NCBI RefSeq assembly: GCF_028069655.1
Contig: NZ_JAMCOS010000001.1
Coordinates: 402,001 to 466,000 of the forward strand
Direction of reading: 5' to 3'
DNA: 64,000 bases
Source: Acidovorax sp. NCPPB 4044
GTDB lineage: Bacteria > Pseudomonadota > Gammaproteobacteria > Burkholderiales > Burkholderiaceae_C
Part shown: positions 6,166 to 57,090 of the stretch, one piece after another
Layout: every line of letters starts with the position of its first letter
How positions within the stretch are numbered: the first letter of the stretch is position 1
Notes under the pieces: generated by a model
Seen by the model: only the letters and a program-made list of their open reading frames with translations
What the model was told of the DNA's origin: nothing
Database searches by the model: none
Translations under genes and position numbers: made by a program

Positions 6166-6216
6166 TTTGCTATCTATTTCGTAGCAAACTAATCAGTATT
6201 TGCGGCGGCATGGAGG
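6166..6216 (+). repeat. Dispersed ~50-bp element, copy A
   Basis: The copy starts at the base after the msrQ stop. TTTGCTAT (6166-6173) can pair with GTAGCAAA (6181-6188) across a 7-nt loop. The variable part AATCAGTATT follows, and the conserved tail GCGGCGGCATGGAG ends the unit. Six further copies occur at 7246, 24846, 32547, 41405, 47905 and 57044. Confidence 0.8.
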
Positions 6217-6290
6217 CGAAAAGACGGGTTGGGTGATATCCAGTCGAATGCTTTCCGGATGGGGGCACGACCCTTTGCCGGGCGCGATCT

Positions 6291-6698
6291 TCAGGGCCTG
6301 GTGTTGGGGCAGCCCGGTATCTGCGCCGCTTCCGTGCACTCCGATGGGATGTTTTCAAAGACGACCCCCGGGCTGACATAGACCTTGTTGGCTTGCACGG
6401 GCGGGTCGAGTTGCCAGTCGATTCCGCTGCCGCCTGAAAGATCAACCACCTTGCTTTCCCCAAGCAACTCTTTGGGGTCCACCCGGTACAGGCGGACGAT
6501 GGCTGGATCCCTCTGGTCGTAATGCACGATGCGCTGCCACAGCGATGCGTCGTAGATCTCCAGCCGATAGACGTAGTGGGGGCTGTTGTAGGTCATGAAA
6601 AGCGCTGGCCTGGTCGCATACCAGCCCAGCACCACGCAGGCATTCAATGCCAGGCACCAGACGATGCAGGGCACGTTCTTGAGATCGGACAGTTTCAT
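6291..6698 (-). CDS. Small membrane-anchored hypothetical protein
   Basis: I do not recognise this 135-aa product. It starts MKLSDLKN, followed by one hydrophobic segment (about residues 9-30) that would act as a signal anchor or signal peptide. The rest is a soluble, probably periplasmic, domain rich in Tyr, Asp and Pro, with two cysteines near the C-terminus that could pair. The ATG at 6698 overlaps the stop of the upstream fragment (TGATG), so the two were one transcription unit. The base composition is lower in G+C than the neighbours, suggesting an acquired patch. Small proteins of this kind often accompany type VI secretion-associated DUF6402 genes; that link is an inference. Confidence 0.6.
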   Translation of the reverse strand: MKLSDLKNVPCIVWCLALNACVVLGWYATRPALFMTYNSPHYVYRLEIYDASLWQRIVHYDQRDPAIVRLYRVDPKELLGESKVVDLSGGSGIDWQLDPPVQANKVYVSPGVVFENIPSECTEAAQIPGCPNTRP

Positions 6699-7075
6699 CA
6701 CCACTCCAACTTGATCGGAAAAGGAAGGCGCACGCGGTGTACGTCGGAGACGACCATGAAATCCCCGCCCCGGCCATGCAACGCACGCCATTGCCTGAAA
6801 TGCCGGTTCTGCACCAGATAGCTCTGGTGGCTTGCCTCGGCGGCATCGGCGTACATCCACTGCTCATCGATGGGGATGTCCAGGGCGGACCGGGGTGTGC
6901 GCTTCACGCCACGCGGTCCCCAGAAGCCCAGCGGCTGCGATAGAAAGGAATCGTCGTTGAAGTCGTAGGCGTCGCGCAGGTGGAAGGCCAACTCGTCGAT
7001 GGCGATGGCGATGGCGGCCCTGTATCTTTTCGGGTTCCGCGCGCGTGCGCTCCCTGTCCACGTGGACGATATCGT
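6698..7075 (-). pseudogene. 5'-truncated gene, possible DUF6402 C-terminal fragment
   Basis: The open frame runs from a stop at about 7078 to the stop at 6698 with no convincing start; the first candidate is TTG at 6991. The readable protein contains YDFNDDSFLSQPLGFWG and later GRGGDFMVVSDVHRV, which look like the C-terminal part of a larger conserved protein; I recall similar motifs in DUF6402, a type VI secretion-associated family, but could not check. The expected N-terminal two thirds is missing. A triple GGCGAT repeat (about 6998-7015) marks the region where the frame loses similarity. The reading frame beside it (NDIVHVDRERTRAEPEKIQ) may be the displaced continuation, which would indicate a frameshift. 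Confidence 0.5.
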
Positions 7076-7245
7076 TCACTCGCCTCTCCCCCCCGCTTGG
7101 GTCTCTTCGTTTTTACGGGACCGGATTCTGACGGGAAAAGCGGCGAGGGAGGGGAGAAGTCACGGTTCTTTGGTGACTTTGGGTAACGTTTGGATGGATG
7201 GGCGGGCACCTGCGGCGAACCCTGCCGTGGCGGAGGTTATGCTGA

Positions 7246-7295
7246 TTGCTATATTTTTAATAGCAAACTATTCAATGAAACCGGCGGCATGGAGG
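7246..7295 (+). repeat. Dispersed ~50-bp element, copy B
   Basis: TTGCTAT (7246-7252) pairs with ATAGCAA (7260-7266) across an AT-only loop. It is followed by ACTATTCAATG and the tail CCGGCGGCATGGAGG. It lies 16 bp beyond the stop of the minus-strand ODP gene. With copy A (same orientation) it brackets the small accessory patch at 6217-7245. Confidence 0.85.
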
Positions 7296-7311
7296 CCGAA
7301 ACACCTGAAGT

Positions 7312-8148
7312 TCAGCTGCGCACGGCCTGCAGCGCCGGCCGCACCTGCCGGGTGGCCGGATCGATGATCGCCGTGGGCAGCTGGTAGGCCCGGTCGTCGA
7401 ACAGGTCGATGCCGCACTGCAGGTTCTCGATCCAGTCCAGGAAATCGCCGATGGCCTTCTTGCCCAGGATGGGCGAGCCGTGCTGCGGCACCAGCATGGC
7501 GATGTCGAGCTGCCGCGCCATGCGCGTCCACAGGCGCAGGATCTTGTTGGAGACCATGTAGCGGCGGTGGAAGCCTTCCATGAGCGGGATGTGCGGGGCC
7601 AGTTCGGTGACGGGCTCGCGCGCCTTCGCTCCGGAGGTGAGCGACACCGCCAGATCGCCGGTGAACAGGATCTTGCTCACCGGGTCGTAGAAGTGGAAGT
7701 TGCCCTCCGAGTGCATGAAGTGCGCCGGCAGCAGCACCAGCTCGTTGCGGCCCAGTGGCAGGTGGCCGCCGGCATCGGGCACGCCGATCACGCGGTTCTC
7801 GGTCTTGCCCACCTTGGTGAAGTGGGGCGCGAAGCGCTCCCAGACGCGCGAGATCACCAGCGTGGCCTTGGTGCTGGTCATCCACCGGTCGAGCGACGCG
7901 ATGATGTCCGGGTCTGCGTGCGAGGCGATCAGGTAGGAGAGCTTGTGCGGGGCGAAGTGCTTGCTCATGCCCATGAACAGCTCGTTGAAGGCGAGGTTGC
8001 CGCCCGGGTCGATGATCGCGCCCGTGTCCCCGTCCACGATGAGGAACTGATTGGCCTGCACCGCCTGTCCGTCCTCTTCGATGAGGTCGGAGAACATCAG
8101 GCAGGCGTGGTGCTTGTCTCGATAGAGTTCCAGGGGTTCCGATGCCAT
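7312..8148 (-). CDS. ODP-type (oxygen-binding di-iron) metallo-beta-lactamase-fold protein
   Basis: The 278-aa product has the metallo-beta-lactamase fold of the ODP/flavodiiron group, in which a di-iron centre binds oxygen. Likely metal ligands are His and Asp in SHADPDI, His in HFMHSEGNF, Asp in FTGDLAV and His in VPQHGS. The HxDPD version of the first motif fits ODP proteins better than hydrolases or flavodiiron NO reductases. There is no flavodoxin domain, so it is not a complete flavodiiron protein. It could be an oxygen sensor or scavenger. It stands alone on its strand. An FNR/ANR box is centred about 60 bp upstream of the start, which points to control by oxygen. Confidence 0.8.
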   Translation of the reverse strand: MASEPLELYRDKHHACLMFSDLIEEDGQAVQANQFLIVDGDTGAIIDPGGNLAFNELFMGMSKHFAPHKLSYLIASHADPDIIASLDRWMTSTKATLVISRVWERFAPHFTKVGKTENRVIGVPDAGGHLPLGRNELVLLPAHFMHSEGNFHFYDPVSKILFTGDLAVSLTSGAKAREPVTELAPHIPLMEGFHRRYMVSNKILRLWTRMARQLDIAMLVPQHGSPILGKKAIGDFLDWIENLQCGIDLFDDRAYQLPTAIIDPATRQVRPALQAVRS

Positions 8149-8199
8149 AGCGTTCCACGTGTCATGAAACGGTCAATGTACGGACATCGGCCCGCCGGG

Positions 8200-8219
8200 C
8201 GCTTGATGCGCATCAAGCG
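8200..8219 (-). promoter_or_regulatory. FNR/ANR binding site upstream of the ODP gene
   Basis: The 20-bp sequence is a perfect palindrome and contains TTGATGCGCATCAA (8203-8216), an exact match to the FNR/ANR consensus TTGAT-N4-ATCAA. On the minus strand TACATT at 8180-8175 is a plausible -10. A start near 8168 would put the dyad centre close to -41.5, the geometry of a class II FNR promoter, leaving a leader of about 20 nt before ATG 8148. The promoter reading is inference. Confidence 0.75.
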
Positions 8220-8224
8220 AATGG

Positions 8225-23910: not shown

Positions 23911-24839
23911 AGCCCGCGCGCGCCCCCAAGTCAGTCCCCCGCGCCGGTGCGCAGGCCCCGGCTGCCGACGCGCAGGTGATGCAGGAACTGCGCCCGGGCC
24001 AGTCGGTGGAACTGCTCAAGGAGCTGCACATCCTCACGCGCGATGGCCGGCTCAACCAGGACTCGCGGCGCAAGCTCAAGCAGGTCTACCACCTGTTCCA
24101 GTTCATCGAGCCGCTGCTGCGCGAGTTCGCCCAGGACGGGCAGGCGCCCACGCTGGCCGACCACGGTGCGGGCAAGTCGTACCTGGGCTTCATCCTCTAC
24201 GACCTGTTCTTCCGCGAGCTGGGCCGCGGGCACATCTACGGCATCGAGACGCGGGCCGAGCTGGTGGCGCGGTCGGAGGCGCTGGCGCAGCGGCTGGGTT
24301 TCGACCGCATGGCCTTCCTGCACCTGACCGTGGCGGAATCGACCGCCGCCGCGGCGCTGCCCGCACGCTTCGACGTGGTCACGGCGCTGCACGCCTGCGA
24401 TACCGCGACGGACGATGCCATCGCCTTCGGGCTGGCGAAGCAGGCGCGCGCCATGGTGATCGTGCCGTGCTGCCAGGCCGAAGTGGCCGCCTGCCTGCGC
24501 CAGAACAAGGCGCTGGCGCTCGCGCGCACGCCGCTGGCCGAACTGTGGCGCCACCCGCTGCACACGCGCGAGCTGGGCAGCCAGCTCACCAACGTCCTGC
24601 GCTGCCTCTACCTGGAAGCCAGCGGCTACCAGGTGACGGTGACCGAGCTGGTCGGCTGGGAGCACAGCATGAAGAACGAGCTGATCGTCGCGCGCCACAC
24701 CGGCCAGCGCAAGCGCAGCGCGGCCGAGCGGCTGCGCGCCATCCTGGCGGAATTCGGCCTGGAGCAGGAGCTGGCGGCGCGGTTCCCGCTGACGGCCGCC
24801 CCGGTTCCTTCCGGGGCGGTGGCGCAAGAGTCTGCATGA
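23907..24839 (+). CDS. SAM-dependent methyltransferase (Methyltransf_32/METTL25-TRM13-like)
   Basis: The 310-aa protein contains the SAM-binding motif LADHGAGKSYLGF, an acidic motif after it (YGIETRAELV), and TALHACDTATDDAIAFG followed by VIVPCCQAEV. This pattern resembles the Methyltransf_32 group related to TRM13 and METTL25. An RNA substrate is possible but not demonstrated by the sequence. The start is GTG 23907, overlapping the DUF1415 stop. Seven bases after the stop begins copy C of the dispersed repeat. Confidence 0.75.
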   Translation: MKPARAPKSVPRAGAQAPAADAQVMQELRPGQSVELLKELHILTRDGRLNQDSRRKLKQVYHLFQFIEPLLREFAQDGQAPTLADHGAGKSYLGFILYDLFFRELGRGHIYGIETRAELVARSEALAQRLGFDRMAFLHLTVAESTAAAALPARFDVVTALHACDTATDDAIAFGLAKQARAMVIVPCCQAEVAACLRQNKALALARTPLAELWRHPLHTRELGSQLTNVLRCLYLEASGYQVTVTELVGWEHSMKNELIVARHTGQRKRSAAERLRAILAEFGLEQELAARFPLTAAPVPSGAVAQESA

Positions 24840-24845
24840 AATATG

Positions 24846-24895
24846 CTCCATGCCGCCGGATCCATTGAATAGTTTGCTATAAAAATCATAGTAAA
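24846..24895 (-). repeat. Dispersed ~50-bp element, copy C
   Basis: Read on the minus strand: TTTACTAT, loop, ATAGCAAACTATTCAATG, GAT, CCGGCGGCATGGAGC. The stem has one A-C mismatch. The G/C-rich tail faces the methyltransferase stop and the hairpin faces the REP-associated transposase gene, which starts about 200 bp away. Confidence 0.85.
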
Positions 24896-25096: not shown

Positions 25097-25798
25097 ATGG
25101 CCCGCCTTCCCCGCCTGACCCTGCCCGGGTACCCTCACCACGTCATCCACCGCGGCAACAACCGCCAGGTGGTGTTCGTGGACCGGCAGGACCGCGAGGC
25201 CCTGCTGGACCTGTTGGCGGAGCAGTCCCGCGCCTGCGGGGTCGCCATCCATGCCTATGTGCTGATGGACAACCATTTCCACCTGCTGGCCACGCCGCGC
25301 ACCGCGGAAGGCCTGCCGTTGCTGATGCAGGCCGTCGGGCGCAGCTACGTGCGGGCCTTCAACCAGCGCCACGGGCGCAGCGGCACGCTGTGGGAGGGGC
25401 GCTACCGCTCCACGGTGCTGGAGGCCGAACGGTACCTGCTGGCCTGCATGGCCTACATCGATCTCAATCCCGTGCGGGCCGGGCTGGTGGCCCAGCCGGA
25501 GGACTACCCCTGGTCCAGCCACGCCCACGCGCTGGGCCTGCGGGCGGACCGGGTGGTGACGCCGCACGCGCTCTACTGGGCGCTGGGCAATACACCGTTC
25601 GCGCGCGAGGCCGCCTATGCGGCCCTGGTGCAGGCCGGGCTGGCGGCGTCGGAGCAGGGACGCATTACCGAGGCGACGCTGGCGGGCTGGGCGCTGGGAA
25701 GCGATCCGTTCGCCACCGCGCTGCAAGCGCAGACCGCGCGAAGGGTGACCAAGGCCCGCGCAGGGCGCCCCCGCAAGAGCGACGACGGCTCTCCCTGA
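25097..25798 (+). mobile_element. REP-associated tyrosine transposase (RAYT, Y1_Tnp/IS200-like)
   Basis: The 233-aa product belongs to the single-gene Y1 transposase family that moves or maintains REP-type repeats. The HUH motif is seen in DNHFHLL (about residues 55-61), and the catalytic tyrosine is probably in GRSYVRAFNQRHGRSGTLWEGRY. The domain ends with the family-typical DLNPVRAGLV and YPWSS. ATG 25097 fits the family start MARLPRLTLPGYPHHVIHRG. The gene is complete and has no partner such as tnpB. Copy C of the dispersed element lies upstream, and two near-identical 15-bp direct repeats lie downstream. Confidence 0.88.
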
Positions 25799-32381: not shown

Positions 32382-32530
32382 TGATGCGCATCGCCACCAC
32401 GCGCCCGAGCGGATCATGCGCGAAGGAGCGGCGGCTGCCGTCCGGGCGCGCCTCCTGCGCCATGCGGTTGGCGGCGTCGTAGCCCAAACCAGCCGGTCCG
32501 CGCCGTCGGCCCGCGTCACGGACATGGAGT
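32382..32530 (-). pseudogene. Multiply deleted remnant of an rhs gene
   Basis: The segment repeats, nearly base for base, pieces of the intact rhs gene: 32386-32490 matches about 35513-35620, and the rest corresponds to short blocks near 35657-35672, 35768-35793 and 35818-35838. The pieces are in order but the sequence between them is missing, and the joints fall at short shared words such as GGCGTCGTAG and CGCCGTCG. It encodes parts of the YD-repeat region and no open frame of meaningful length. Confidence 0.8.
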
Positions 32531-32546
32531 TGGCATTGAAATCGGC

Positions 32547-32580
32547 CTCATGCCGCCGGATTCATTGAATAGTTTGCTAT
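32547..32580 (-). repeat. Dispersed element, copy D (half unit)
   Basis: On the minus strand this reads ATAGCAAACTATTCAATG, AAT, then CCGGCGGCATGAGG. The left arm of the hairpin is missing: the sequence stops matching at 32581. The truncation lies on the side of the Rhs immunity gene. Copy E, in the opposite orientation, closes the other side of the rhs-vgrG cassette. Confidence 0.75.
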
Positions 32581-32614
32581 TGATTCAGGAGTGAAAAAGG
32601 TGTGCAACAACGCT

Positions 32615-33214: not shown

Positions 33215-33216
33215 AT

Positions 33217-36200
33217 TTACCTTGTTGTGACGGTTCCGGAAGTCATGGTGGAAGTATCCAGTGTTCCTGCGGCAGGAATACTTCCCTTCGGGACGGTGAT
33301 AACAACCGCATTAGGATTCTGCTGGGTAATGCGCACAGCATTATTCCATTCACGCTGACTCATCCCATTGACACTGCCTTTGTCCACGGTCTGTACGTAG
33401 ACAGTTCGACCCTGGGCGTCTGTGAATGTCATATCGGTGTAGGAAGCACCTTTGCGTCCGCCATTGAGAGGGGGAAGATAAGTTTCTGGAAGTTCGGCTC
33501 CCGTTACCACGTCACGCCCGCCCTGCGAATGGTTGTATGTGGGGTTATCGACTTGAAACTGATCCCGCACTTGATCCATATGCCCCTTGGTCGCGGCATT
33601 CCCCCGTCGGCACCACCCCAGCGGATCGGTCCAGGTCATCGGATTGAACGCATATTGGTGGAGATTCACCCCGCCGGCCAGCCCGATGGGGTCGGGCGTG
33701 GTGAAGGCCCCCAGGTCGGGGTCGTAGTACCGGAAGGTGTTGTAGTGCAGCCCGGTTTCGCGGTCCAGGTACTGGCCCTGCATGCGCAGGTTCTGCGGTA
33801 GCGGCACGGCGACGGATTGCGAGCGGATGCCCGTTTCCGCGACGGGCGCATCCACCGGCCGGCCTGCCGCATCGAACGCCTGCCATTCCTCGGCGACGGC
33901 GCTGCCCCAGACGCGGTACTGCGCCCGCCAGACGAGGTGGCCGTCGCGGTCGCTCATTTCCTCGGGCAGGCCGTTGGGCTGGAGGTGGAAGTAGTAGATG
34001 CGCGCCGGGGGTTGCGATGGGTCGGCGGCAGAAGCTTTGGCGCTCACCGGCTGCTCCGGCTCCTGTGCTGCCTCCCGCTGCGCCAGCCAGCGCGCGGTCG
34101 CACCCACCGGGCCCGCCACGGCATGGTGCGCATCGCTCGCGTCCCCGTTGGTGACGGGGATGGAGCGCACCTTGCCCGCCGCCGGGTCGGCATTCGGATC
34201 CTCCCCCACCAGCGCGAGCGCCGCCGCCGGGTGTTCGGGCTCCAGGGCGCCGGCCCCGTCGATGCGCGCCAGCGGCCGGTAGCCCCCCGGCTCGTACACG
34301 TAGGTGCTGGTGTTCGCGCCCCGGCCTTCCTGCAGGAGCCGCAGGCCTTCCCACACGAAGCGCGTCGCGCCGAAGTCGTCCTCCTTGGCGGTGCGCCGGC
34401 CCAGGGCGTCGTAGCGGTAGCGGAACACCTGCCGGATGGGCTCGCCGTCGCGGCCCGCGCGGATCACCGAGGCATGGGTCATGCGATGCAGTGCGTCGTA
34501 GCGGCAGTGCAGTTCGGTGTGCGCGCCGATGCGCTTGCGCACCAGCCGGCCGAAGCCGTCGTAGTCGAAGCGCCTGTCCTGCAGCACCTTCACGCGGTTG
34601 TGGCGCACCCAGCCCCGGCTGCTGCCCTCGGCGCCTTGCCCACCTTGGGACACGGGCGCATCCAGCCGGTTGCCGGCGGGGTCGTAGTGGAAGACCTCGT
34701 GCAGCGCCTGCCGCAGCGCGGGCGATGCCGTGCCAGCGCTCCCCAGGGCCTGCAGCGTGGCCGAGAGCACATGGCCGGCCGGGTCGTAGCGGTAGCGGGT
34801 CTCGCCGTTGCGGCTGTGGCGCGTGCGCGCCAGCTCGCCCGAGGCGTCGTAGTCCCATTGCTTGCGCAGGCCGTCCGATGCACTGGCGCCCCACGGCATG
34901 GATGCGCCGTCGTCCACCCGCCCCGCCCAGTCGCTCGACACGCGCAGGCCCGCCGACTGGGTCCACTGCGCGCGCTGCCGGCCCAGCGGGTCGTAGGCCC
35001 AGCGGCTCGCCCAGCGCCCCTGGGTGCGTAGCACCTCGCGGTGCAGGTCGTCCCGTTCGATGTCAGCCACCACGACGCCGTCCAGGCTGATCTGGTGGAC
35101 ATGGCCACTGCCGTAATGCAACTGGCGCAACACGCGCCCGTCCGGCAGTTCGGTGGACAGGCGGTTGCCCAGCGGGTCGTGCGTGTGGCGCAGCGTGGTG
35201 TGCGTGCCCGCATCGGTGTCCCGCGCAGACTCCGAGACGAGGTCGCCCAGCGCGCTGTAGCCGAACTCCAGCACCTGAGCGGGCGACCGGGTTTCGCCGT
35301 CGAGCGTCTGCGCCTGGACGATCCGGTTCATGCGGTCGTAGGCGAAGCGGTGCGCGATGCGGTCGTGCGGCGAGGGCGAGCGCACCAGCGCCTGCACGCG
35401 CTTGTCCACGAGGCGGCCGATGGCGTCGCGCTCGTAGGCGGTCTGGATCGGCGCGGCCGGCGCGTGGCCGGCAATGGATTGCTCGATCACGTCGTCCTCG
35501 CCGGGGTCTTCGCGCATCGCCACCACGCGCCCGAGCGGATCGTGCGCGAAGGAGCGGCGGCTGCCGTCCGGGCGCGCCTCCTGCGCCATGCGGTTGGCCG
35601 CGTCGTAGGCGAAGCGGTAGGTGGCGCCGTTCTCGCCGACGAGGCTGGCGAGGCGGTGGGCGGCGTCGTAGCCCAGGTGGACGGCGCCGCCGCCGGGATA
35701 CTGCAGGGCCAGCAGCTTGCCGTGGATGTCGTAGCGGTAGTGCGTGAGCCGGTGGCCGGAGTCGCCCGCCCAAACCAGCCGGTCCGCGCCGTCGTAGCCG
35801 TAGCGCTGCGCCGAGCCGTCGGCCCGCGTCACGGACAGCAGGCGGCCGAGCGCATCGTGCACGTAGCGCGTGGTCTGCCCCAGCGCATCCGTGCGCGATC
35901 TCAGGAACCCGTGGGCGTCGTACTCGAAGCGCGTGGCCTTGCCCGAGCAGTCGGTGTGGCGCACCAGCAGGGCGCGTTCGTCCCAGGCCCACTGCTGGCG
36001 GCCGCCGTTCGCGTCGATGGTGACGACGGGCAGGCCGCGCGGGCCGTGCAGCGTGGATTCGCGCCAGCGCGCCTCGCCCTCATCGCCCGGGATATGGGGC
36101 GGCGCGCCTGGCTCCAGCGGCGGGCCGAGCACTTCCGTGCGGTTGCCGCGGTCGTCGTAGGCGTAGTGCCAGCGGGTGCCGTCCACGGCGGTGGCCGCGC

Positions 36201-38067
36201 GCACGCGCTGCAGGCGCTCGTGCCAGTCCAGCCGGGCGGTCTGGCCCAGCGGGTCGGTGGCGCCGGTCAGGTTGCCCAGGCGGTCGTAGGCGAAGGTGAA
36301 GCGGGTGCCGTCCGCGCGGGTCCAGGCCAGCAGTTGCCACAGGCCGTTCCACTCCATGCGCTGCACCTGCCCCAGCGGGTCCTCGATGCGCGTGACGTTC
36401 TGGTCCGCGTCGTGGTCGAAGAGCTGCACGCGCCCGAGGTGGTCGGTGACGCGCGTGCGCCGGTCGCCGGGCCGCTCGCCGGGCAGGCCGTATTCGAAGG
36501 TCCAGGCGGTGGCGGGCAGGCCCGGGGCCGCGTCCTCCAGCCAGTGGTGCACCACGCGGCCTGCGGGGCCGGGCCGGTCCCAGCGGTAGCGGGCCACGAG
36601 CCCGCTGGCGAAGGTCTGCGCGACGAGGGTGGTGCCTTCCCAATCGAAGCGCCGCACGCAGCGGCCCAGGCGGTCGATGACCTGTGCGAGCTGGCCGTGG
36701 CCGTCGTAGCGGTATTCGACCAGCGTGCCGGCCGGGCCGCCCGCGGTGAGATCGACCCGCACGAGGCGCAGCCCGCCGGATTGCGCCTGGGCATACCGCA
36801 GCGCGAGCCGGTGGCCCGCGCTGTCGGTCACGTGCCGCACCACGCCGTCGGCATCGCGGTGGAAGTCGATGGTGTTGCCGTTGAAATCCGCCCATTGCAG
36901 CAGGCCGAGGCGCTCGCCGTCGCTGTCGCCGGTGCGCTGGCCGAAGCAGTAGATCCAGCCCATGGCGGGCATGCCGATGAAGTAGGCGCCGTTCTCCCCG
37001 CGGCTCAACTGCAGGCCCTCGGGCACGCTGAACATCTGGCCGCCGGAGGGCAGGTCGTCGAAGGGGATGTCGCGGCCTGCTTCGTCGATGAAGTGCGCCT
37101 TGCCGCCCTCGAAGACCAGCTCCACGCCGAAAGGCAGGCTCCAGCCTGTGCCCAGCGCACCCGTGCGCGCATCGCAGGACGCATAGGTGCGGCGCCACAC
37201 GATGGGCAACACACCGGGCAGGCTGAAGTCGGTGTCGTCGTCGCCCAGCAGCACCTTGGCACCGGTCACCACGTGCACCGGCTTGCCTTGCAGGAAGTTG
37301 CCCAGGCCCGTGCCCGCCCCATCGCCCCAGCGGGTTGCCGTGGAATGCCCGCCGTCGAAGGACGGCATGATCTCGCCCATGACCTTCGCGCCCGCCACGC
37401 CGGTGAGCACCGCCATGCCGAAGCACTTGACGCCGGCCTTGAGCGCGCCGGTGGCGCCGCCGAGGATGCCGGCCCAGAAGCGCGCCTTGCTGGCGAAATC
37501 GCGGTCGGACTGCGGCACTTCGCGCACGCGGAAGTTCGCGATGGGAACCGACTCGCCGCCGATGAAGACGTCGTCCGAGCCCTTGCTGATCTTGGCCTCG
37601 CAATCCACGCAGTCGCCTTCGCGCGCGGCGCGGTAGCTGTCGATGAAGACGTTTTCGCTGCCGAAGATCACCAGGCTGGGCGGCATGCTGTGCTTGGCGC
37701 ACTCGGCCACGTCCAGGCCGGTTCGGATGGCCGGCTGGCCGTTGATGAACACGGTGGCCGATCCGGTGGCGGTGAGCGTGCCGCAGTCGGAGCTGAAACT
37801 TCGCCCGAAGGCCTCGCCGAAGGATTGGACGAAGTCGCCCACCAGCGAGAAAGCGTGCGCGACGACGAATGACGCCAGGGCCACCCCTATGCCGATGGCG
37901 ATCCCCGCCGCCGTGCCCAGGCCGGGGCATGCGATCGTTCCTACTACGGCGCCGATCGCCACGGCGGCGCCGAACTCGATGCCCACGGCCGCAGCAGCAC
38001 CGGCCGCGTGCCCCTCGCGGGCATAGGTATGGGAGATCGGATCGTGCAGTCTGGCGGCCTTGGGCAT
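33217..38067 (-). CDS. Type VI secretion Rhs effector with prePAAR motif and variable C-terminal toxin
   Basis: This 1616-aa protein is a polymorphic toxin delivered by a type VI secretion spike. It starts with the prePAAR motif AARLHDPISH (residues 4-13), then a hydrophobic hairpin (about 22-85) and a PAAR domain that caps VgrG. A DUF6531 region and many YD/Rhs repeats form the shell. The core ends with DPIGLAGG and TDPLGW near residue 1485. The last 131 residues are the exchangeable toxin; I do not recognise it, but the spacing of GGRKGASYTDMTFTD and VQTVDKG resembles a restriction-endonuclease-like core, so a DNase is a guess. G+C drops sharply after DPLGW. The Eag chaperone upstream should bind the hydrophobic hairpin. 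Confidence 0.9.
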   Translation of the reverse strand: MPKAARLHDPISHTYAREGHAAGAAAAVGIEFGAAVAIGAVVGTIACPGLGTAAGIAIGIGVALASFVVAHAFSLVGDFVQSFGEAFGRSFSSDCGTLTATGSATVFINGQPAIRTGLDVAECAKHSMPPSLVIFGSENVFIDSYRAAREGDCVDCEAKISKGSDDVFIGGESVPIANFRVREVPQSDRDFASKARFWAGILGGATGALKAGVKCFGMAVLTGVAGAKVMGEIMPSFDGGHSTATRWGDGAGTGLGNFLQGKPVHVVTGAKVLLGDDDTDFSLPGVLPIVWRRTYASCDARTGALGTGWSLPFGVELVFEGGKAHFIDEAGRDIPFDDLPSGGQMFSVPEGLQLSRGENGAYFIGMPAMGWIYCFGQRTGDSDGERLGLLQWADFNGNTIDFHRDADGVVRHVTDSAGHRLALRYAQAQSGGLRLVRVDLTAGGPAGTLVEYRYDGHGQLAQVIDRLGRCVRRFDWEGTTLVAQTFASGLVARYRWDRPGPAGRVVHHWLEDAAPGLPATAWTFEYGLPGERPGDRRTRVTDHLGRVQLFDHDADQNVTRIEDPLGQVQRMEWNGLWQLLAWTRADGTRFTFAYDRLGNLTGATDPLGQTARLDWHERLQRVRAATAVDGTRWHYAYDDRGNRTEVLGPPLEPGAPPHIPGDEGEARWRESTLHGPRGLPVVTIDANGGRQQWAWDERALLVRHTDCSGKATRFEYDAHGFLRSRTDALGQTTRYVHDALGRLLSVTRADGSAQRYGYDGADRLVWAGDSGHRLTHYRYDIHGKLLALQYPGGGAVHLGYDAAHRLASLVGENGATYRFAYDAANRMAQEARPDGSRRSFAHDPLGRVVAMREDPGEDDVIEQSIAGHAPAAPIQTAYERDAIGRLVDKRVQALVRSPSPHDRIAHRFAYDRMNRIVQAQTLDGETRSPAQVLEFGYSALGDLVSESARDTDAGTHTTLRHTHDPLGNRLSTELPDGRVLRQLHYGSGHVHQISLDGVVVADIERDDLHREVLRTQGRWASRWAYDPLGRQRAQWTQSAGLRVSSDWAGRVDDGASMPWGASASDGLRKQWDYDASGELARTRHSRNGETRYRYDPAGHVLSATLQALGSAGTASPALRQALHEVFHYDPAGNRLDAPVSQGGQGAEGSSRGWVRHNRVKVLQDRRFDYDGFGRLVRKRIGAHTELHCRYDALHRMTHASVIRAGRDGEPIRQVFRYRYDALGRRTAKEDDFGATRFVWEGLRLLQEGRGANTSTYVYEPGGYRPLARIDGAGALEPEHPAAALALVGEDPNADPAAGKVRSIPVTNGDASDAHHAVAGPVGATARWLAQREAAQEPEQPVSAKASAADPSQPPARIYYFHLQPNGLPEEMSDRDGHLVWRAQYRVWGSAVAEEWQAFDAAGRPVDAPVAETGIRSQSVAVPLPQNLRMQGQYLDRETGLHYNTFRYYDPDLGAFTTPDPIGLAGGVNLHQYAFNPMTWTDPLGWCRRGNAATKGHMDQVRDQFQVDNPTYNHSQGGRDVVTGAELPETYLPPLNGGRKGASYTDMTFTDAQGRTVYVQTVDKGSVNGMSQREWNNAVRITQQNPNAVVITVPKGSIPAAGTLDTSTMTSGTVTTR

Positions 38068-38124
38068 GGCGTGGAGCGGGTGAAGCGGGAAATCGGTACG
38101 GACGAGCGGTGTTTGGCCAGAGGC

Positions 38125-38583
38125 TCAGGCGCGCAGGCGCAGGCTGTGCAGGACGGAGGCCCAGTGCGCGAGGTGTACGTCTTTCCACGGCCCGGCATGG
38201 GTGCCGGTCACCACCAGTGCGCGGCGCCCTGGCATCTCCGCGAGCACGACCTTCTGGTGGATGGGGTGGCCCTGCTTGGTGTAGGTGACATAGGCACCCG
38301 CGGCGTTGTGCGCCCCGCCGGAAGAGGGTGCGCCGGGCGGCGCATTCAACGGCAGATAGGTCGTGCCGAATTCCAGTTCCCTGAACTGCTTGCCCGAGGT
38401 GGCCAGCGCCTTGACCTGCTCGCGCAGCAGTTGCTCGACACTTCCGCCCTCATCGAAGTAGTCGCGCGTGATGACCACGCTGAAAGGCAGGGCCGGATCG
38501 CCGAAGACCAGCACGTTCACGCTGCGGTCGATGAAGCTGCCCTCGGGCAGGTCGAAGGTGGCTTCCTGGAGGTGGTACTGCAT
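38125..38583 (-). CDS. Eag-type (DcrB/DUF1795) T6SS effector chaperone
   Basis: The 152-aa product has the DcrB/DUF1795 fold used by Eag chaperones, which shield the membrane segments of prePAAR effectors before secretion. It reads MQYHLQEATFDLPEG followed by DRSVNVLVFG and ends KDVHLAHWASVLHSLRL, as in the family. I chose ATG 38583; a TTG 18 bp earlier is less likely. It lies between vgrG (31 bp) and rhs (57 bp), exactly where an Eag chaperone for the prePAAR-containing Rhs is expected. Confidence 0.85.
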   Translation of the reverse strand: MQYHLQEATFDLPEGSFIDRSVNVLVFGDPALPFSVVITRDYFDEGGSVEQLLREQVKALATSGKQFRELEFGTTYLPLNAPPGAPSSGGAHNAAGAYVTYTKQGHPIHQKVVLAEMPGRRALVVTGTHAGPWKDVHLAHWASVLHSLRLRA

Positions 38584-38614
38584 GGATCGTTCCGCGGCCA
38601 AAGCCGCGGGAGGG

Positions 38615-41149
38615 TCAGTTAATGTTGACGGGCTTGCCCAGCACGGTGAGCACGTCCGAGAGTTCGATGAGCCCGTTCTTGCCGCGGATCTCCACCTTGC
38701 CGTCGCTGGTGAGGGTGATGGAAGCGCCCTCGCCCGCGGTGAGCGTGACCGTGGCCCCGGCCTGCAGGCGGATGTGCTGGCCCGCCTTGACGAGCACCGA
38801 GTCGTCGGTGGCCTGCAGGTTGACGTTCTGCTGGCCCACGACGGTGGCGGTGTCGGTGCGCGAGGCCAGGGTCGCGTTCTGCTGGGCCGTGAGGTTCAGG
38901 TGACCCGTCTGCGCGTCGGTGGCGATGTCGCCCGCGCCCACGGTGGTGCGCTGCCCGCCTTCGGAGACGTGCGTCAGCATGCCGGCCTTGGCGAGCTGAG
39001 TGAGCTGCGCGCCGCTGGAGACGGTGATGTGCTGCGTGGCGTGCATCGACGCGCTCTGTCCCGAGCTGATGACGATGGGCTTGGGGCTGACCATCGTGTG
39101 GCCCTGCGGGCTCACGATGGAGACGATGGGCTGCGTGATGTCGCGCGAGAGTTCGCGCAGCGCCTGCGACTGCGGCATGGCCGGATCGGTGTCGGACGGC
39201 AGGGCCGCTTCCGGCGCACCGCCGCCGCTGCCCCCACCGCCCTGGAAGGCCGAGAGCGCGGCCGCCGCCTTCGACAGCGTCGCCGACGCGGCCTGGCCGC
39301 CCGTCATGGCCGCGACGCCGGCGCCCAATTCCATCATGTGCGAGGTCTTGAGCGAGTTGAGCGCGCCGATGTTCGCGTCCAGCGCCTGCGCCGCCTGAGC
39401 GGCTTGCTGCATGAGCGAAGCCGTGCCGGCGAGCCCCGCGCCCAGTTGGTCGAAGCCATCGGGGTTGTTCACCGAGACCAGGGAAGTGAAGTCCTGCGGA
39501 TAGGTGGTGATCAGGAGGCCCTTGTCCGCGCGGATCGAGCCCCACAGGTCCGTGCGCAGCTCGAAGCCGTAGCCGCGCTGCGAGCCCGAGCCCTGGTGCA
39601 TCAGGTACCCCATGTTCAGGTACGTGTTGCCGTAGGTGTTGGACAGCTCCAGGTGCTCCATGCCCTTCTTGTCCTCGAAGCGCAGCATGCTCGCGCCACC
39701 GCCGCCCTTGCTCCAGTGCGTGAGCGTGCCCGACTGCGTCTTGTGGTCGGGCAGCTTCCACGGCGGCATCTGGTCGGCGTTGTACACCCGCCCCGTGATG
39801 AGCGGGTAGTCCGGGTCCCCATTGAGGAAGTCCACCACCACTTCCTGCCCGATGCGCGGCAGGTAGATGCTGCCGTAGTTCTGCCCCGCCCAGCCCTGCG
39901 AGACGCGGATCCAGCAGCTCGACTGCTCGTCGAACCTGCCCTCCCGGTCCCAGTGGAACTGCACCTTCACCCGCCCGTACTGGTCCGGCCAGATCTCCTC
40001 GCCCGGCGGGCCCACGACCACCGCCGTCTGCGGGCCCGTGGTCTTCGGTTTGGGCGTCACCCGCTCGGGCGTGTACGGCACGCTCGTGGGCTGCGCCTGC
40101 AGCACGAAGCGCTGGAAGGAGCCTTCCTCCTGCTCGCTGCCCGCCTCCCCGGGCACCGCCGCGCTCGCCCGCGGGTTCTCCCGGAAGTGGTACTCCACCG
40201 CCGTGAGCAGGTAGGGCTGGTTCTGGTCCCCGCGCGGGTAGTTCTCCAGCGTGAACGTGTAGCCCGGCGCCAGCGCCCGGTGGCGCGACTCCCCACGCAC
40301 CGTGCTGCGCCCCGAGAGGTTGCCCTGCAGCCGCACCCGCGCGTACGCCTCCCCGTCGCCGAATTCCGTGTACCCGCCCGGCCACTCGTAGGTCTCGTGC
40401 GCGTCGTGGCTGTGCCCCGGCGGCATCTGCCGCATGTTCGCCAGGTCCGCACGGGGCTTCTTGAAGTCGTAGTCGTCGTTGTAGTACCGCCCCGACTTGA
40501 TCTCCTCGAAGAGCTCCCACGCGTGGATGTTCTCCCGGTCCGCCGCCGCCGCCTTCTCCGGCGGATAGAACGGGATCACCGCCGCCCCCGCCAGCGGCTC
40601 GTGCGAGGCCACGATGTCATCGGCCAGCGTCAGCGTGTGCTGCCCCGCACTGTGCTGGTGGTAGTAATAGATCCCCTCGTGCTCCATCAGCCGCGAGACG
40701 AACTGCAGGTCGCTCTCCCCATATTGCACGCAGTAATCCCACGTGCGGTAGCTGCGGCTGAGTTTCTTGTCCAGCGGATAGCCGTAGACCCCCAGTACCT
40801 CCTCGATGATCTGCGGCACGCTCTTGTTCTGGAATATCCGGAAGTCGCTCTTGCGCGACGCCAGCCACACCCACGGCTGCAGCCTCAGCCGGTACGAGTA
40901 GTACCGGTGGTCCTGCCCCTGCATCCCGAACCGCGTCACGATCCCGTCGATGTAGCGCCGCCCACCGCCCTCCGTCTCCACCACCACCGTCGCGTTCTTG
41001 CCCAAAAGCGCCTTCGGATCCACCTCCCGGCTCTCGCTTTGCAGGTCGATGTCCAGGCTGTACACCTCGCTCAGCCCCTCCCGGCCCCGCATCTCCCGGA
41101 AATGCAGCGATTCCCCTACCGGCGTTTTTATGGTGACTCGACGTGTCAT
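38615..41149 (-). CDS. vgrG: Type VI secretion spike protein VgrG (TssI)
   Basis: The 844-aa protein has the gp27/gp5-like VgrG core (QSESREVDPKALLGKNATV, EHEGIYYYHQH, GPPGEEIWPDQYGRVKVQF) followed by DUF2345 and a beta-helical tail. The Gly-rich stretch at about residues 645-655 links the spike to the C-terminal region. It forms the tip that carries the PAAR-Rhs effector. No tss structural genes are in the window, so this is an orphan vgrG-effector cassette that must use a secretion apparatus encoded elsewhere. Start ATG 41149. Confidence 0.95.
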   Translation of the reverse strand: MTRRVTIKTPVGESLHFREMRGREGLSEVYSLDIDLQSESREVDPKALLGKNATVVVETEGGGRRYIDGIVTRFGMQGQDHRYYSYRLRLQPWVWLASRKSDFRIFQNKSVPQIIEEVLGVYGYPLDKKLSRSYRTWDYCVQYGESDLQFVSRLMEHEGIYYYHQHSAGQHTLTLADDIVASHEPLAGAAVIPFYPPEKAAAADRENIHAWELFEEIKSGRYYNDDYDFKKPRADLANMRQMPPGHSHDAHETYEWPGGYTEFGDGEAYARVRLQGNLSGRSTVRGESRHRALAPGYTFTLENYPRGDQNQPYLLTAVEYHFRENPRASAAVPGEAGSEQEEGSFQRFVLQAQPTSVPYTPERVTPKPKTTGPQTAVVVGPPGEEIWPDQYGRVKVQFHWDREGRFDEQSSCWIRVSQGWAGQNYGSIYLPRIGQEVVVDFLNGDPDYPLITGRVYNADQMPPWKLPDHKTQSGTLTHWSKGGGGASMLRFEDKKGMEHLELSNTYGNTYLNMGYLMHQGSGSQRGYGFELRTDLWGSIRADKGLLITTYPQDFTSLVSVNNPDGFDQLGAGLAGTASLMQQAAQAAQALDANIGALNSLKTSHMMELGAGVAAMTGGQAASATLSKAAAALSAFQGGGGSGGGAPEAALPSDTDPAMPQSQALRELSRDITQPIVSIVSPQGHTMVSPKPIVISSGQSASMHATQHITVSSGAQLTQLAKAGMLTHVSEGGQRTTVGAGDIATDAQTGHLNLTAQQNATLASRTDTATVVGQQNVNLQATDDSVLVKAGQHIRLQAGATVTLTAGEGASITLTSDGKVEIRGKNGLIELSDVLTVLGKPVNIN

Positions 41150-41404
41150 CTTTGGTGGTCGACGTGCAGTGAAGGCTGCACGCTCGGATCTGAATGGGCC
41201 GGGATGATAGGGCGGCGCCTGGATGTCGAAGGAAAAAACGAAAGGGAAGTTGTTTCCTATAGTTTTTTGTTATAGGCGCTCAAAATATCCAATGCCTTGT
41301 CTTGGGGTGTGTGCAAGGTGTTCGCCCGCGCCCACCCGATCTTTCCCATGCCTTCTCCGGCAGGTTGCCGCTCTCGCGTCGTCCGCTCCAGATTGCAAAC
41401 ATGA
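41150..41404. promoter_or_regulatory. Upstream region of the vgrG cassette
   Basis: No gene is supported. The region is more A/T-rich than its surroundings and must contain the minus-strand promoter for vgrG-eag-rhs-immunity. CCTATA (41256-41261) and TATAGG (41271-41276) form a small inverted repeat around a T-rich loop. I cannot assign -35/-10 boxes with confidence. Confidence 0.4.
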
Positions 41405-41453
41405 TTGCTATAAGAGTATGAGCAAACTATTCAATGTTTGCGGCGGCATGGAG
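41405..41453 (+). repeat. Dispersed ~50-bp element, copy E
   Basis: TTGCT (41405-41409) pairs with AGCAA across a 12-nt loop; then come ACTATTCAATG and GCGGCGGCATGGAG. The end of the unit is part of a perfect 25-nt palindrome (41446-41470, arms GCATGGAGCCGA and TCGGCTCCATGC), so a second, stronger hairpin is attached to this copy. Confidence 0.85.
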
Positions 41454-41505
41454 CCGATTCGGCTCCATGCCTTGCTGCGGGCCGCTTCTCTTTCTTTCTT
41501 CTCCC

Positions 41506-47904: not shown

Positions 47905-47955
47905 TTTGCTATCGAATATGTAGCTAAGAATCGAATGGATCCGGCGGCATGGAGG
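47905..47955 (+). repeat. Dispersed ~50-bp element, copy F
   Basis: TTTGCTA pairs with TAGCTAA (one mismatch), followed by GAATCGAATG, GAT and CCGGCGGCATGGAGG. It lies between the divergent fecI and amino-acid transporter genes. The middle of this copy has diverged most. Confidence 0.75.
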
Positions 47956-47983
47956 CCTTTTGGCTTGGATTTCCGCCCTGAGC

Positions 47984-53847: not shown

Positions 53848-53865
53848 ACAGAAAGGAAACGAACC

Positions 53866-54522: not shown

Positions 54523-54548
54523 TCGGCCCGCGCGCGACGACGACCGCC

Positions 54549-54912: not shown

Positions 54913-55890
54913 ATGCCTGCAGTTTCCTTCCAGTCCGTCTCCAAGACCTATTCCACGCCCAAAGGTCCGTTCCAGGCGCTCGACAGCGTGAGCCTGGACA
55001 TCGAGGAGGGCGAGTTCTTCGGCCTCCTCGGGCCGAATGGCGCGGGCAAGACCACCCTGATCAGCATCCTCGCCGGCTTGGCGCGTGCCTCCAGCGGGCG
55101 TGTGCTCGTGCAGGGCCACGACGTGCAGGCCGATTTCGCCGCCGCGCGCCGGCAGCTCGGCATCGTGCCGCAGGAGCTGGTGTTCGATCCGTTCTTCAAC
55201 GTGCGCGAGGCACTGCGCATCCAGTCCGGCTATTTCGGCGTGAAGAACAACGGTGCCTGGATCGACGAGCTGCTGGAGGCCCTCGGGCTGGCCGACAAGG
55301 CCACCGCCAACATGCGCCAGCTCTCGGGCGGCATGAAGCGCCGCGTGCTGGTGGCGCAGGCGCTGGTGCACAAGCCGCCCATCATCGTGCTGGACGAGCC
55401 CACGGCCGGCGTCGATGTGGAACTGCGCCAGACCCTCTGGCACTTCATCGCGCGGCTCAACAAGGCGGGCCATACCGTGCTGCTCACCACCCATTACCTC
55501 GAAGAGGCCGAGGCGCTGTGCCAGCGCATCGCGATGCTCAAGCGCGGCCGGACGATCGCGCTCTCGACCACGTCCGACCTGCTGCATGCGGCGTCCACGA
55601 ACGTGCTGCGCTTCAAGACCGACGACACGCTGCCGCCTTCGCTGGCCGGCACCGCACGCGTCACGGGCCGCGTGGTCCAGATGCCCGCGCAGGACGCCGC
55701 CGAGATCGAGCGCCTGCTGGCCGCGCTGCGCGCCGCGGGCGTGGGCGTGCACGACATCGAGATCCGCAAGGCGGACCTGGAGGACGTGTTCCTCAACCTG
55801 ATGGCCGAGGGCCGCTACCCCGATCCGGCGCATGCGCCGGCACCGGCCGGCGAGCCCGAGGAAACGCCCGAAGGCGGGGTGCGGCTATGA
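54913..55890 (+). CDS. ABC-2 type transporter, ATP-binding protein (YadG-like)
   Basis: This 325-aa ATPase belongs to the ABC-2 exporter group. Walker A is GPNGAGKTT, the signature LSGGMKRRVLVAQAL and Walker B IIVLDEPTAGVD. The C-terminal 60 residues form the extra domain seen in such exporters, with a Pro/Glu/Gly-rich tail. It sits after mlaB, the same place as in many Burkholderiales. The exported substrate is unknown. Confidence 0.9.
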   Translation: MPAVSFQSVSKTYSTPKGPFQALDSVSLDIEEGEFFGLLGPNGAGKTTLISILAGLARASSGRVLVQGHDVQADFAAARRQLGIVPQELVFDPFFNVREALRIQSGYFGVKNNGAWIDELLEALGLADKATANMRQLSGGMKRRVLVAQALVHKPPIIVLDEPTAGVDVELRQTLWHFIARLNKAGHTVLLTTHYLEEAEALCQRIAMLKRGRTIALSTTSDLLHAASTNVLRFKTDDTLPPSLAGTARVTGRVVQMPAQDAAEIERLLAALRAAGVGVHDIEIRKADLEDVFLNLMAEGRYPDPAHAPAPAGEPEETPEGGVRL

Positions 55891-55937
55891 GCGGCAACGA
55901 CGACATGGCCGCGCGCGGCGCGGAGGTGATCCTGTGA
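55887..55937 (+). CDS. 16-codon micro-ORF bridging the two ABC-2 genes
   Basis: An ATG overlaps the ATPase stop (ATGA at 55887-55890) and its own stop overlaps the permease GTG (GTGA at 55934-55937). The peptide would be MSGNDDMAARGAEVIL. Such an arrangement could pass ribosomes from one gene to the next. It may equally be a chance frame, or the remains of a former permease start. Confidence 0.35.
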   Translation: MSGNDDMAARGAEVIL

Positions 55938-56689
55938 ACGGCTGGCAGACCCTGTTCTACAAGGAGGTGCTGCGGTTCTGGAAAGTGAGCTTCCAGACCA
56001 TCGCGGCGCCCGTGCTCACGGCCGTGCTCTACCTGCTGATCTTCGGCCACGTGCTCGAAGACCACGTGAAGGTCTACGACCGCCTGAGCTACACGGCCTT
56101 CCTCGTGCCCGGCCTCGTGATGATGAGCGTGCTGCAGAACGCCTTCGCCAACAGCTCGTCGAGCCTGATCCAGAGCAAGATCATGGGCAACCTCGTGTTC
56201 GTGCTGCTCGCCCCGCTGTCGCACTGGGCCTGGTTCTTCGCGTACGTGGGCTCGTCCGCGCTGCGCGGGCTGGTGGTGGGGCTGGGCGTGTTCATCGCCA
56301 CGCTGGGCTTCGCGCGGCCCGAGTTCGCCGCGCCGCTGTGGATCGCCGCGTTCGCGCTGCTGGGCGCGGCGCTGCTGGCCACGCTGGGGCTCATCGCGGG
56401 GCTGTGGGCCGACAAGTTCGACCAGATGGCGGCCTTCCAGAATTTCATCATCGTGCCCATGACGTTCCTCTCGGGCGTGTTCTATTCCATCCAGTCGCTG
56501 CCGCCGTTCTGGCAGACCGTGAGCCACCTGAACCCGTTCTTCTACATGATCGACGGCTTCCGCTACGGCTTCTTCGGGCAGAGCGACACCTCTCCGTGGC
56601 TGAGCCTGGCCATCGTGGGCGGCGCCTGGCTGGCCGTGAGCGCGCTGGCGGTGCACCTGCTGCGCACGGGCTACAAGATCCGCCATTGA
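55934..56689 (+). CDS. ABC-2 type transporter, permease (YadH-like)
   Basis: The 251-aa inner-membrane protein has six predicted membrane helices and the ABC-2 permease motifs AFLVPGLVMMSVLQNAF and FIIVPMTFLSGVFYSIQSLP. It works with the preceding ATPase. The start is GTG 55934, which gives NGWQTLFYKEVLRFWK as the N-terminal amphipathic helix. Confidence 0.9.
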   Translation: MNGWQTLFYKEVLRFWKVSFQTIAAPVLTAVLYLLIFGHVLEDHVKVYDRLSYTAFLVPGLVMMSVLQNAFANSSSSLIQSKIMGNLVFVLLAPLSHWAWFFAYVGSSALRGLVVGLGVFIATLGFARPEFAAPLWIAAFALLGAALLATLGLIAGLWADKFDQMAAFQNFIIVPMTFLSGVFYSIQSLPPFWQTVSHLNPFFYMIDGFRYGFFGQSDTSPWLSLAIVGGAWLAVSALAVHLLRTGYKIRH

Positions 56690-56781
56690 GCGGACGGCCG
56701 GCAGCCCGTGCGCCCCGCGCGGGCGGCGGGCCGGCCCATCCCGATCCCGACCTCCTCCCCCATTTCCCGCAAAGGCCCTCG

Positions 56782-57030
56782 ATGAACGCAGACCAACTCA
56801 AAGAACTGATCCGTGCGGGCCTGCCCTGCGAACATCTGCAGCTCGAAGGCGACGGGCGCCACTGGTACGCGACCATCGTGTCGGCCGAGTTCGAGGGCAA
56901 GCGCGCCATCCAGCGCCACCAGCGCGTGTACGCCACGCTCGGCAGCCGCATGCAGACCGACGAGGTGCATGCGCTGTCGATGAAGACCTACACCCCCGCC
57001 GAGTGGGCCGCGCTGCCGCAGGAAGACTGA
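56782..57030 (+). CDS. BolA family protein (IbaG/YrbA-like)
   Basis: The 82-aa BolA-family protein is of the short IbaG type, found before murA and after the mla genes in Proteobacteria. Residues RHQRVYATLG carry the expected conserved His and basic patch, and the family ends with HALSMKTYTPAEW. It partners monothiol glutaredoxins for iron-sulfur transfer. Confidence 0.9.
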   Translation: MNADQLKELIRAGLPCEHLQLEGDGRHWYATIVSAEFEGKRAIQRHQRVYATLGSRMQTDEVHALSMKTYTPAEWAALPQED

Positions 57031-57043
57031 AGGCGGCGGCTGG

Positions 57044-57090
57044 TTTGCTCATATTTTGATAGCAAACTTTTCAATGAATCCGGCGGCATA
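57044..57090 (+). repeat. Dispersed ~50-bp element, copy G
   Basis: TTTGCT (57044-57049) pairs with AGCAAA (57061-57066) around an AT-rich loop. CTTTTCAATG, AAT and CCGGCGGCATAAG complete the unit; the final GGAG is replaced by AAG. It lies between the bolA-family gene and murA. Confidence 0.85.

What the first reader, a model, noticed from the sequence alone, without database searches (positions are those of the whole stretch)
6166..57090. A dispersed ~50-bp element with a hairpin and an invariant CCGGCGGCATGGAG tail, seven copies in 64 kb
Copies lie at 6166, 7246, 24846 (minus), 32547 (minus, half), 41405, 47905 and 57044. The pattern is TTTGCTAT, a short AT-rich loop, ATAGCAAACTATTCAATG, two to four variable bases, then CCGGCGGCATGGAGG. 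The A/T-rich half is striking in DNA of about 68% G+C. In several copies the stem has base changes that are tolerated or partly compensated (T-G wobbles), while the tail is almost unchanged, so both structure and tail seem to be selected or recently copied. All copies lie between genes, at operon edges, in both orientations. I do not know a named family that matches.
Basis: seen in the sequence. Interest (0 to 1): 0.78.

Follow-up and report, generated by a model that had tools for sequence, protein, structure and literature searches.

The report
Family-wide dispersed repeat in Comamonadaceae
The seven copies belong to a roughly 70-base DNA repeat present in hundreds of copies in this genome and, in varied forms, in many genera of one bacterial family; it resembles the known REP repeats that a tame transposase spreads, but it differs in build and I found no description of it.

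Summary
In detail: seven copies, far above chance. The genome holds about 330-390 copies (336 pattern hits against 7 for the reversed pattern; 92 copies in 1.264 Mb, none in reversed DNA), all aligned without gaps over 82 columns. The organism is a Paracidovorax (Comamonadaceae). Repeats of the same layout match in 61 of 150 family genomes, and in 3 genomes of other families, weakly, in a sample of 200 from the order.

The constant core is CTA-N9-TAG with a varied, A/T-rich spacer. The 'invariant tail' is this lineage's version.

Against a roughly 95%-identical relative, 14 of 16 own copies are shared in place; their spacers are 91% identical, against 44% between copies within the genome. At three loci a more distant congener carries another body at the same place.

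Best explanation: an old REP-like non-autonomous repeat acting as DNA. The only candidate enzyme examined is a RAYT-type transposase encoded in this window. That link is unproven, and three REP features were tested and not met.

The parts
6166..6234 (+). element copy 1 (own type), directly after the stop codon of an MsrQ-like gene
   Evidence: the relative G154 has one copy where the window has copies 1 and 2
7245..7313 (+). element copy 2; its right flank continues as in the single G154 copy
24827..24895 (-). element copy 3, about 200 bp upstream of the RAYT gene; a profile hit lies within 300 bp upstream of RAYT in 9 of 17 Paracidovorax genomes (two weak, one in the opposite orientation)
32527..32595 (-). 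element copy 4, with degenerate left arm; next to the 9-kb segment missing at this place in G154
41404..41472 (+). element copy 5; own and G154 sequences are unrelated left of GCTAT and nearly identical from there on
47905..47973 (+). element copy 6; copies at the same place in G154, G150 and G158, with a different body in G158
57044..57112 (+). element copy 7, between bolA and murA; same place with a different body in several congeners, not recognisable in others
25097..25798 (+). RAYT-type Y1/HUH transposase gene, the only Y1_Tnp hit in the genome; candidate mobilising enzyme (link unproven)
   Evidence: NF047646 82.5 bits, cut-off 80; PF01797 43.2 bits; one hit in the genome; best PDB hit 4er8 TnpArep, E 0.005

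Best explanation
It is an old family of dispersed, non-autonomous, REP-like DNA repeats of the Comamonadaceae. Each copy is a module of fixed layout, about 70 bp, with two parts. The first is CTA-N9-TAG (usually GCTAT-N7-ATAGC), whose A/T-rich spacer belongs to the locus. The second is a body of about 33 bp that is fairly uniform within this genome and within G031 but differs between genera and between congeners, followed by a TTT or AAA run. Shown: copy number, ungapped layout, family-wide range, lack of arm covariation, intergenic preference and avoidance of divergent gaps, long residence of most copies, and other bodies at the same locus in a congener (three loci). Inferred: copies arose by copying in trans, the own lineage shifted to its present body type after parting from its congeners, and copies persist where they do least harm. 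The most likely copier is the RAYT-type transposase encoded in this window, usually single-copy in the family; I give that step about 0.35.
For: Copy number: 336 pattern hits against 7 in the control; 92 copies in 1.264 Mb, 0 in reversed DNA at E up to 0.1. Layout: ungapped 82 columns in own and multi-genus sets. Range: 61 of 150 family genomes; 3 genomes outside the family with 1-2 hits each in a sample of 200. Placement: 64 of 92 intergenic; divergent gaps 3 against 14.7 expected, p = 1.4e-4; 0 of 47 free copies in divergent gaps in G031. Residence: 14 of 16 own copies shared with G154. Locus-specific spacer: 0.91 between 13 orthologous pairs against 0.44 between own paralogs. RAYT.
Against: No transposition event or target-site duplication was seen. 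A RAYT match is in 142 of 150 family genomes, an element match in 61 of 150, so RAYT presence does not predict the element. Outside Paracidovorax 4 of 28 RAYT loci have an element within 300 bp, near my rough background of 11% of genes (from the hit density and an assumed gene per kb). RAYT here is not flanked by two inverted copies. The RAYT label is only just above cut-off. The body-turnover evidence rests on three loci, and G158 copies from an unselected 40-kb stretch are themselves mixed (35% alike). In tandem gaps the copies are not clearly nearer the stop (27) than the next start (20). Other transposases were not surveyed.
Confidence: 0.6

Rival explanations
1. It is the recognition site of a Comamonadaceae DNA-binding protein (nucleoid-associated or regulatory). 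The CTA-N9-TAG dyad, A/T spacer and fixed distances reflect protein contacts, and bodies changed as the protein evolved.
For: Half-sites kept without arm covariation: CTA in 80 and TAG in 85 of 92 own copies, 75 and 80 of 85 in G031; ungapped layout across genera; both orientations.
Against: No dyad of the strict pattern in 40 kb each of congeners G151, G156 and G162. The own body at three loci differs from the congener's as much as unrelated copies do (0.27-0.52), which coordinated point mutation explains poorly. No partner protein was identified.
Confidence: 0.2
2. It is an RNA element in 3' untranslated regions (terminator or processing signal).
For: Median 23 nt to the upstream stop in 47 tandem gaps. 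Some copies fold well: of 16 folded, 41405 has z -4.9 and L091 z -4.3. Two of 8 terminator-like sites in 41-58 kb touch or adjoin copies 6 and 7.
Against: No arm covariation; both orientations in tandem gaps (30 same, 17 opposite); columns 20-57 fold no better than shuffles in own and G031; the T run is AAA in 19 of 92 copies; terminator-like sites 8 found against 6.0 expected in the 17 kb scanned; no Rfam match.
Confidence: 0.1
3. It is a site-specific recombination site (cassette or integron-like), because gene-content differences start at element ends.
For: Of 14 colinearity breaks between own and G154, 3 have an edge inside an element.
Against: About 1.4 such edges would be expected if breaks simply fall in intergenic DNA (my estimate, from no call); BLAST extension blurs the edges; no recombinase or cassette array was looked for.
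Confidence: 0.1

Closest known systems
REP sequences with RAYT (TnpAREP) and REPtrons
   Same: More than 100 copies per genome, mostly extragenic, both orientations, a RAYT-type gene in the same genome; a TAG motif next to a palindrome-like region.
   Different: No strict GTAG/GTGG head (ATAG in 70, GTAG in 15 of 92 copies); arms do not covary; RAYT not flanked by two inverted copies; a module of about 70 bp with a locus-specific spacer.
REPINs
   Same: Dispersed, long-lived population in one genome, with RAYT as the presumed copier (PMC8049555, one passage).
   Different: Copies are singlets of fixed layout, not two inverted REPs around a spacer; among 92 copies only two pairs lie within 400 bp, both in direct orientation.
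MITEs (including ERIC/RUP-type intergenic repeats; recalled)
   Same: Short, non-coding, dispersed, mostly intergenic.
   Different: No terminal inverted repeats joining the two ends; target-site duplication not shown.
DNA uptake sequences (DUS/USS; recalled)
   Same: Abundant and lineage-specific.
   Different: Much longer conserved unit, lower density, mostly intergenic; no uptake evidence.

Membership tests
REP / REPtron | GTAG or GTGG tetranucleotide directly 5' of the palindrome (PMC2817692, PMC8266576, passages) | tested here: not met
   The conserved motif is CTA-N9-TAG; of 92 own copies 70 have ATAG and 15 GTAG. An RTAG tag is a resemblance, not a match.
REP / REPtron | palindrome kept by complementary changes (PMC2817692, passage) | tested here: not met
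   Arms: 80.3% paired against 80.4% shuffled in 92 own copies; 68.2% against 68.6% in 85 unfiltered G031 copies. The sets agree, but their CTA/TAG columns were fixed or nearly so by how rows were picked. A hairpin at columns 23-52 in other genera shows a weak excess: 65.1% against 62.7%, 13 of 500 shuffles; another register of it does not, 84 of 500.
REP / REPtron | RAYT gene flanked by two inverted REPs | tested here: not met
   One copy upstream, none downstream of the window RAYT; 13 of 45 RAYT loci have an element within 300 bp, none on both sides.
REP / REPtron | more than 100 copies per genome, extragenic | tested here: met
   (64 of 92 midpoints intergenic)
REP / REPtron | cleavage and copying by RAYT | not testable with these tools
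   needs biochemistry
MITE | terminal inverted repeats | tested here: not met
   The only clear dyad is at the left end; the right end is not its complement in the alignments (read by eye).
MITE | target-site duplication | tested here: inconclusive
   Flanks and empty sites seen at a few loci show no clear duplication; too few clean empty sites.
Rfam families | match at gathering score | tested here: not met
   window; seven loci from other genera
Intrinsic terminator | G+C-rich hairpin plus T run in most copies | tested here: not met
DNA uptake sequence | promotes uptake of own DNA | not testable with these tools
   no assay

The most novel reading that the evidence does not exclude
A two-part dispersed repeat in which each locus keeps its own CTA-N7 spacer while the body 3' of TAG can be overwritten by the lineage's current version: targeted copying into resident sites (a homing REP), possibly by a RAYT that uses CTA as cleavage site and TAG as guide. 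This would be concerted evolution of hundreds of dispersed 70-bp elements in bacteria.
Probability: 0.15. Interest if true: 0.75.

Novelty: new variant of a known kind. Interest (0 to 1): 0.5.

Why it matters
It is a repeat family that runs through many genera of a large environmental and plant-associated bacterial family, with several hundred copies in this genome, yet I found no description of it in the searches made. Its split into a locus-specific spacer and a replaceable body makes the open question of how REP-like sequences spread and stay alike testable with many natural sites, and offers a possible substrate for a RAYT-type transposase. It also affects annotation, since copies can supply stop codons or lie in gene ends.

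Tried and rejected
Hairpin as a selected structure: rejected for the arms (sets picked by the dyad itself, agree). RNAalifold found no consensus structure in A1. RAYT-flanking (REPtron) as proof of mobilisation: only weakly supported. The first scan of 30 RAYT loci with the own-type profile found one clear element; the multi-genus profile raised that to 14 of 45 loci at E 0.05, 13 of them within 300 bp, 9 of these in Paracidovorax. A small stem at columns 45-47/53-55: no covariation. A G031 hairpin drawn by hand: paired as in shuffles, 82.1% against 82.0%. An own-type hairpin drawn by hand: fewer paired cells than shuffles. Ortholog search of 30 G158 loci against the held own DNA: three two-sided pairs with a dyad, one of them close-spaced. 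Two home-made gene callers picked the wrong strand and were replaced. One search printed noise from too loose a pattern.

Rows dropped: A2 uses 22 of the 37 dyads, picked by hand (hisD starts and doubtful ones left out), plus 8 G031 and 8 own copies. A3 uses 40 of the 68 (of 85) G031 copies that fit the dyad pattern. A4 uses 45 of the 58 hits, which had been kept only if at least 6 of the 7 bases CTA/TAGC fitted (5 hisD starts and 8 others dropped). In one search own paralogs were the best 60 of 92 and the G158 copies the best 30 hits of the own-type model, which biases likeness upward; one search repeats this with all 92 and with 7 unselected G158 hits (two of them weak).

Structure prediction, fold search and the last whole-genome search were not used.
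Full report
Observation. The seven copies are present at the stated places. The window is G000:C1:402001-466000 of a 5.32-Mb genome. In that genome GCAAACTATTCAATG with up to 3 mismatches occurs 336 times, and 7 times when read backwards. An iterated profile finds 92 copies in 1.264 Mb of own DNA (29, 29 and 27 in three 400-kb blocks, 7 in the window; 2,500 bases read N) and none in reversed DNA at E up to 0.1; scaled up, that is about 390 copies. The own-type model R1 returned 150 matches, which is its scoring cap.

Anatomy. The 92 copies align over 82 columns without a gap. CTA stands at columns 8-10 in 80 and TAG at 20-22 in 85 of 92; ATAG in 70, GTAG in 15. The 7-base spacer between the half-sites is A/T-rich and varied. 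Columns 58-60 read TTT in 48 and AAA in 19 of 92 copies. In G031, another genus at 49.6% G+C, 85 copies lie in 400 kb, with the same layout and another body, GCTAT-N7-ATAGCTGCTTAGGCAATAAATACGCCGGC; there CTA is kept in 75 and TAG in 80 of 85. In named genera (Giesbergeria, Comamonas, Rhodoferax, Polaromonas, Simplicispira and others) a third form occurs, ATAGCTGCTTGCGCTT...AAGCGCTGCAGGCC. Of 100 dyads found by pattern in 50 named murA loci and the congener tiles, 51 have a TTT or AAA run 33-34 bases after TAGC; the alignments A2 and A4 were partly chosen by dyad or run, so their fixed columns and spacing are not independent evidence.

Structure. The arms 4-11/19-26 are paired in 80.3% of cells against 80.4% in shuffles for own copies and 68.2% against 68.6% in 85 unfiltered G031 copies. 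Pattern-chosen sets agree: 69.1% against 69.1% and 64.4% against 63.3%. This is a conserved sequence dyad, not a helix kept by compensation. A hairpin right after TAG (columns 23-52) has a weak excess in 45 copies of other genera: 65.1% against 62.7%, reached by 13 of 500 shuffles; a second register has less, 84 of 500. Columns 20-57 fold slightly better than shuffles there (mean z -0.53, s.e. 0.19), but not in own (+0.44) or G031 (+0.06). At the bolA-murA site several congeners show different but self-complementary bodies (read by eye).

Placement. Of 92 midpoints 47 are in tandem gaps, 14 in convergent, 3 in divergent and 28 in called genes (11 of the 28 with scores of 50 or more). By bases 10.5 intergenic would be expected; among intergenic copies, divergent gaps are short of copies (3 against 14.7, p = 1.4e-4) and convergent gaps hold a few more (14 against 8.7, p = 0.07). 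In tandem gaps 27 copies are nearer the upstream stop and 20 nearer the next start, so a preference for gene 3' ends rests on the avoidance of divergent gaps. G031: 31 tandem, 16 convergent and 0 divergent among 47 free copies, with 38 of 85 in or partly in called genes. The gene calls are home-made.

Range. In a sample of 200 genomes of the order, 7 have a match, of which 3 lie outside the family, with 1-2 matches each. A profile found nothing in 565 kb of murA loci from other Burkholderiales. Four Comamonadaceae plasmids carry a match to the Giesbergeria form; the own form has none in plasmids and the Giesbergeria form none in phages.

History. In the part of G154 (chained blocks 87-98%, mostly about 95% identical) that could be compared, 14 of 16 own copies are shared at the same places. 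The two others (window 6166 and 32547) lie beside indels. The G154 copy at 75577 corresponds to an own copy listed, in a stretch of own DNA I did not hold. For 13 orthologous pairs the spacer is 91% identical, against 44% between all 92 own copies, and the body 93% against 70%. At three sites shared with the more distant G158 (beside RAYT, bolA-murA, 47905) the bodies are 52%, 33% and 27% identical and the spacers 86%, 71% and 43%. With G150 the bodies at these sites are 76%, 45% and 61% and the spacers 43%, 71% and 57%. Own copies and 7 unselected G158 hits from 40 kb are 37% alike in the body, and those G158 hits 35% among themselves. So own bodies at these loci are no more like the congener's than other pairs are on average, while own copies resemble each other: the own body type has taken over loci that carry another body in the congener. 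The figure of 60% for own-G158 non-orthologs came from copies picked by the own-type model and is biased. Three sites are few, G158 is mixed, and re-insertion or fast divergence is not excluded. Of 17 Paracidovorax genomes, five have no recognisable copy between bolA and murA, and one more has the genes almost abutting.

Breaks. Where own and G154 differ in gene content, 3 of 14 colinearity breaks have an edge in an element. At 41405 the sequences are unrelated left of GCTAT and nearly identical right of it. By my own estimate about 1.4 such edges would be expected in intergenic DNA, so this is only suggestive.

Candidate enzyme. Window 25097-25798 encodes a RAYT-type protein (NF047646, 82.5 bits against a cut-off of 80; PF01797). 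It is the only Y1_Tnp hit in the genome. Its nearest solved structure by sequence is 4er8, TnpArep (E 0.005). Matches occur in 142 of 150 family genomes, a single one in 113 of them, and one in each of the 16 congeners searched. An element lies within 300 bp of RAYT in 13 of 45 loci: 9 of 17 in Paracidovorax (two of them weak, E 0.006-0.007; eight opposite in direction to RAYT, one, G157, in the same direction) and 4 of 28 elsewhere, against a rough background of 11% of genes that I derived from the hit density and an assumed gene per kb. In G031 one lies 33 bp after RAYT. This is compatible with, but does not show, mobilisation by RAYT. CTA and TAG could be cleavage site and guide by analogy with the IS200/IS605 and REP work (PMC8266576, passages read); this is a lead, not a test.

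Known or new. REP definitions come from passages of PMC2817692, PMC8266576 and PMC3733652, and one passage of PMC8049555. PMC2817692 describes RAYTs as always flanked by two inverted REPs and, apart from one transferred case, proposes that they arose after gammaproteobacteria branched off, so by that paper's usage the window gene would not be a typical RAYT. The names Acidovorax and Delftia, and others searched, do not occur in PMC3733652 and PMC6006769; the whole words repeat, repetitive and REP do not occur in PMC2755013. Searches of the paper library showed no description (listings with abstract starts only). The library lacks most subscription journals, so absence from print is not shown. 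Three REP features were tested and not met (tetranucleotide head, covarying palindrome, RAYT flanked on both sides), so I do not file it as a REP; it behaves like one.

Noticed in passing
window 32615-41149: An 8.5-kb gene block between copies 32547 (-) and 41405 (+), in a segment absent at that place in G154, holds a gene that looks like VgrG (read by eye), a DcrB-domain gene (PF08786), a large RHS-type gene (read by eye) and a small unknown gene, like a type VI secretion cargo island.
   Followed up: partly
window 6291-6991: The 1-kb segment between copies 6166 and 7246, absent in G154, encodes a DUF6402 fragment and a protein without a Pfam match.
   Followed up: partly
L133:11932-12013, L140:12043-12124, L146:11995-12076 and others: In other Comamonadaceae genera what looks like the hisD start codon lies inside a GCTATG-N6-TAGC dyad like that of the element; in this window that start (59127) lacks it.
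   Followed up: partly
L132:17540-17621, L133:17619-17700, L176:16286-16367: What looks like one orthologous copy behind the same gene has the same spacer in three genera, hinting at selection on that copy.
   Followed up: no
window 41440-41475: The 41405 copy extends into a strong hairpin GGCATGGAGCCGATTCGGCTCCATGCC (z -4.9), unlike most of the 16 copies folded.
   Followed up: no
window 32386-32487 and 35512-35613: A 102-bp direct repeat, 96% identical; one copy lies inside the called RHS-type gene 33217-38067 and the other about 130 bp before the called gene at 32615, perhaps a displaced fragment of that gene.
   Followed up: no
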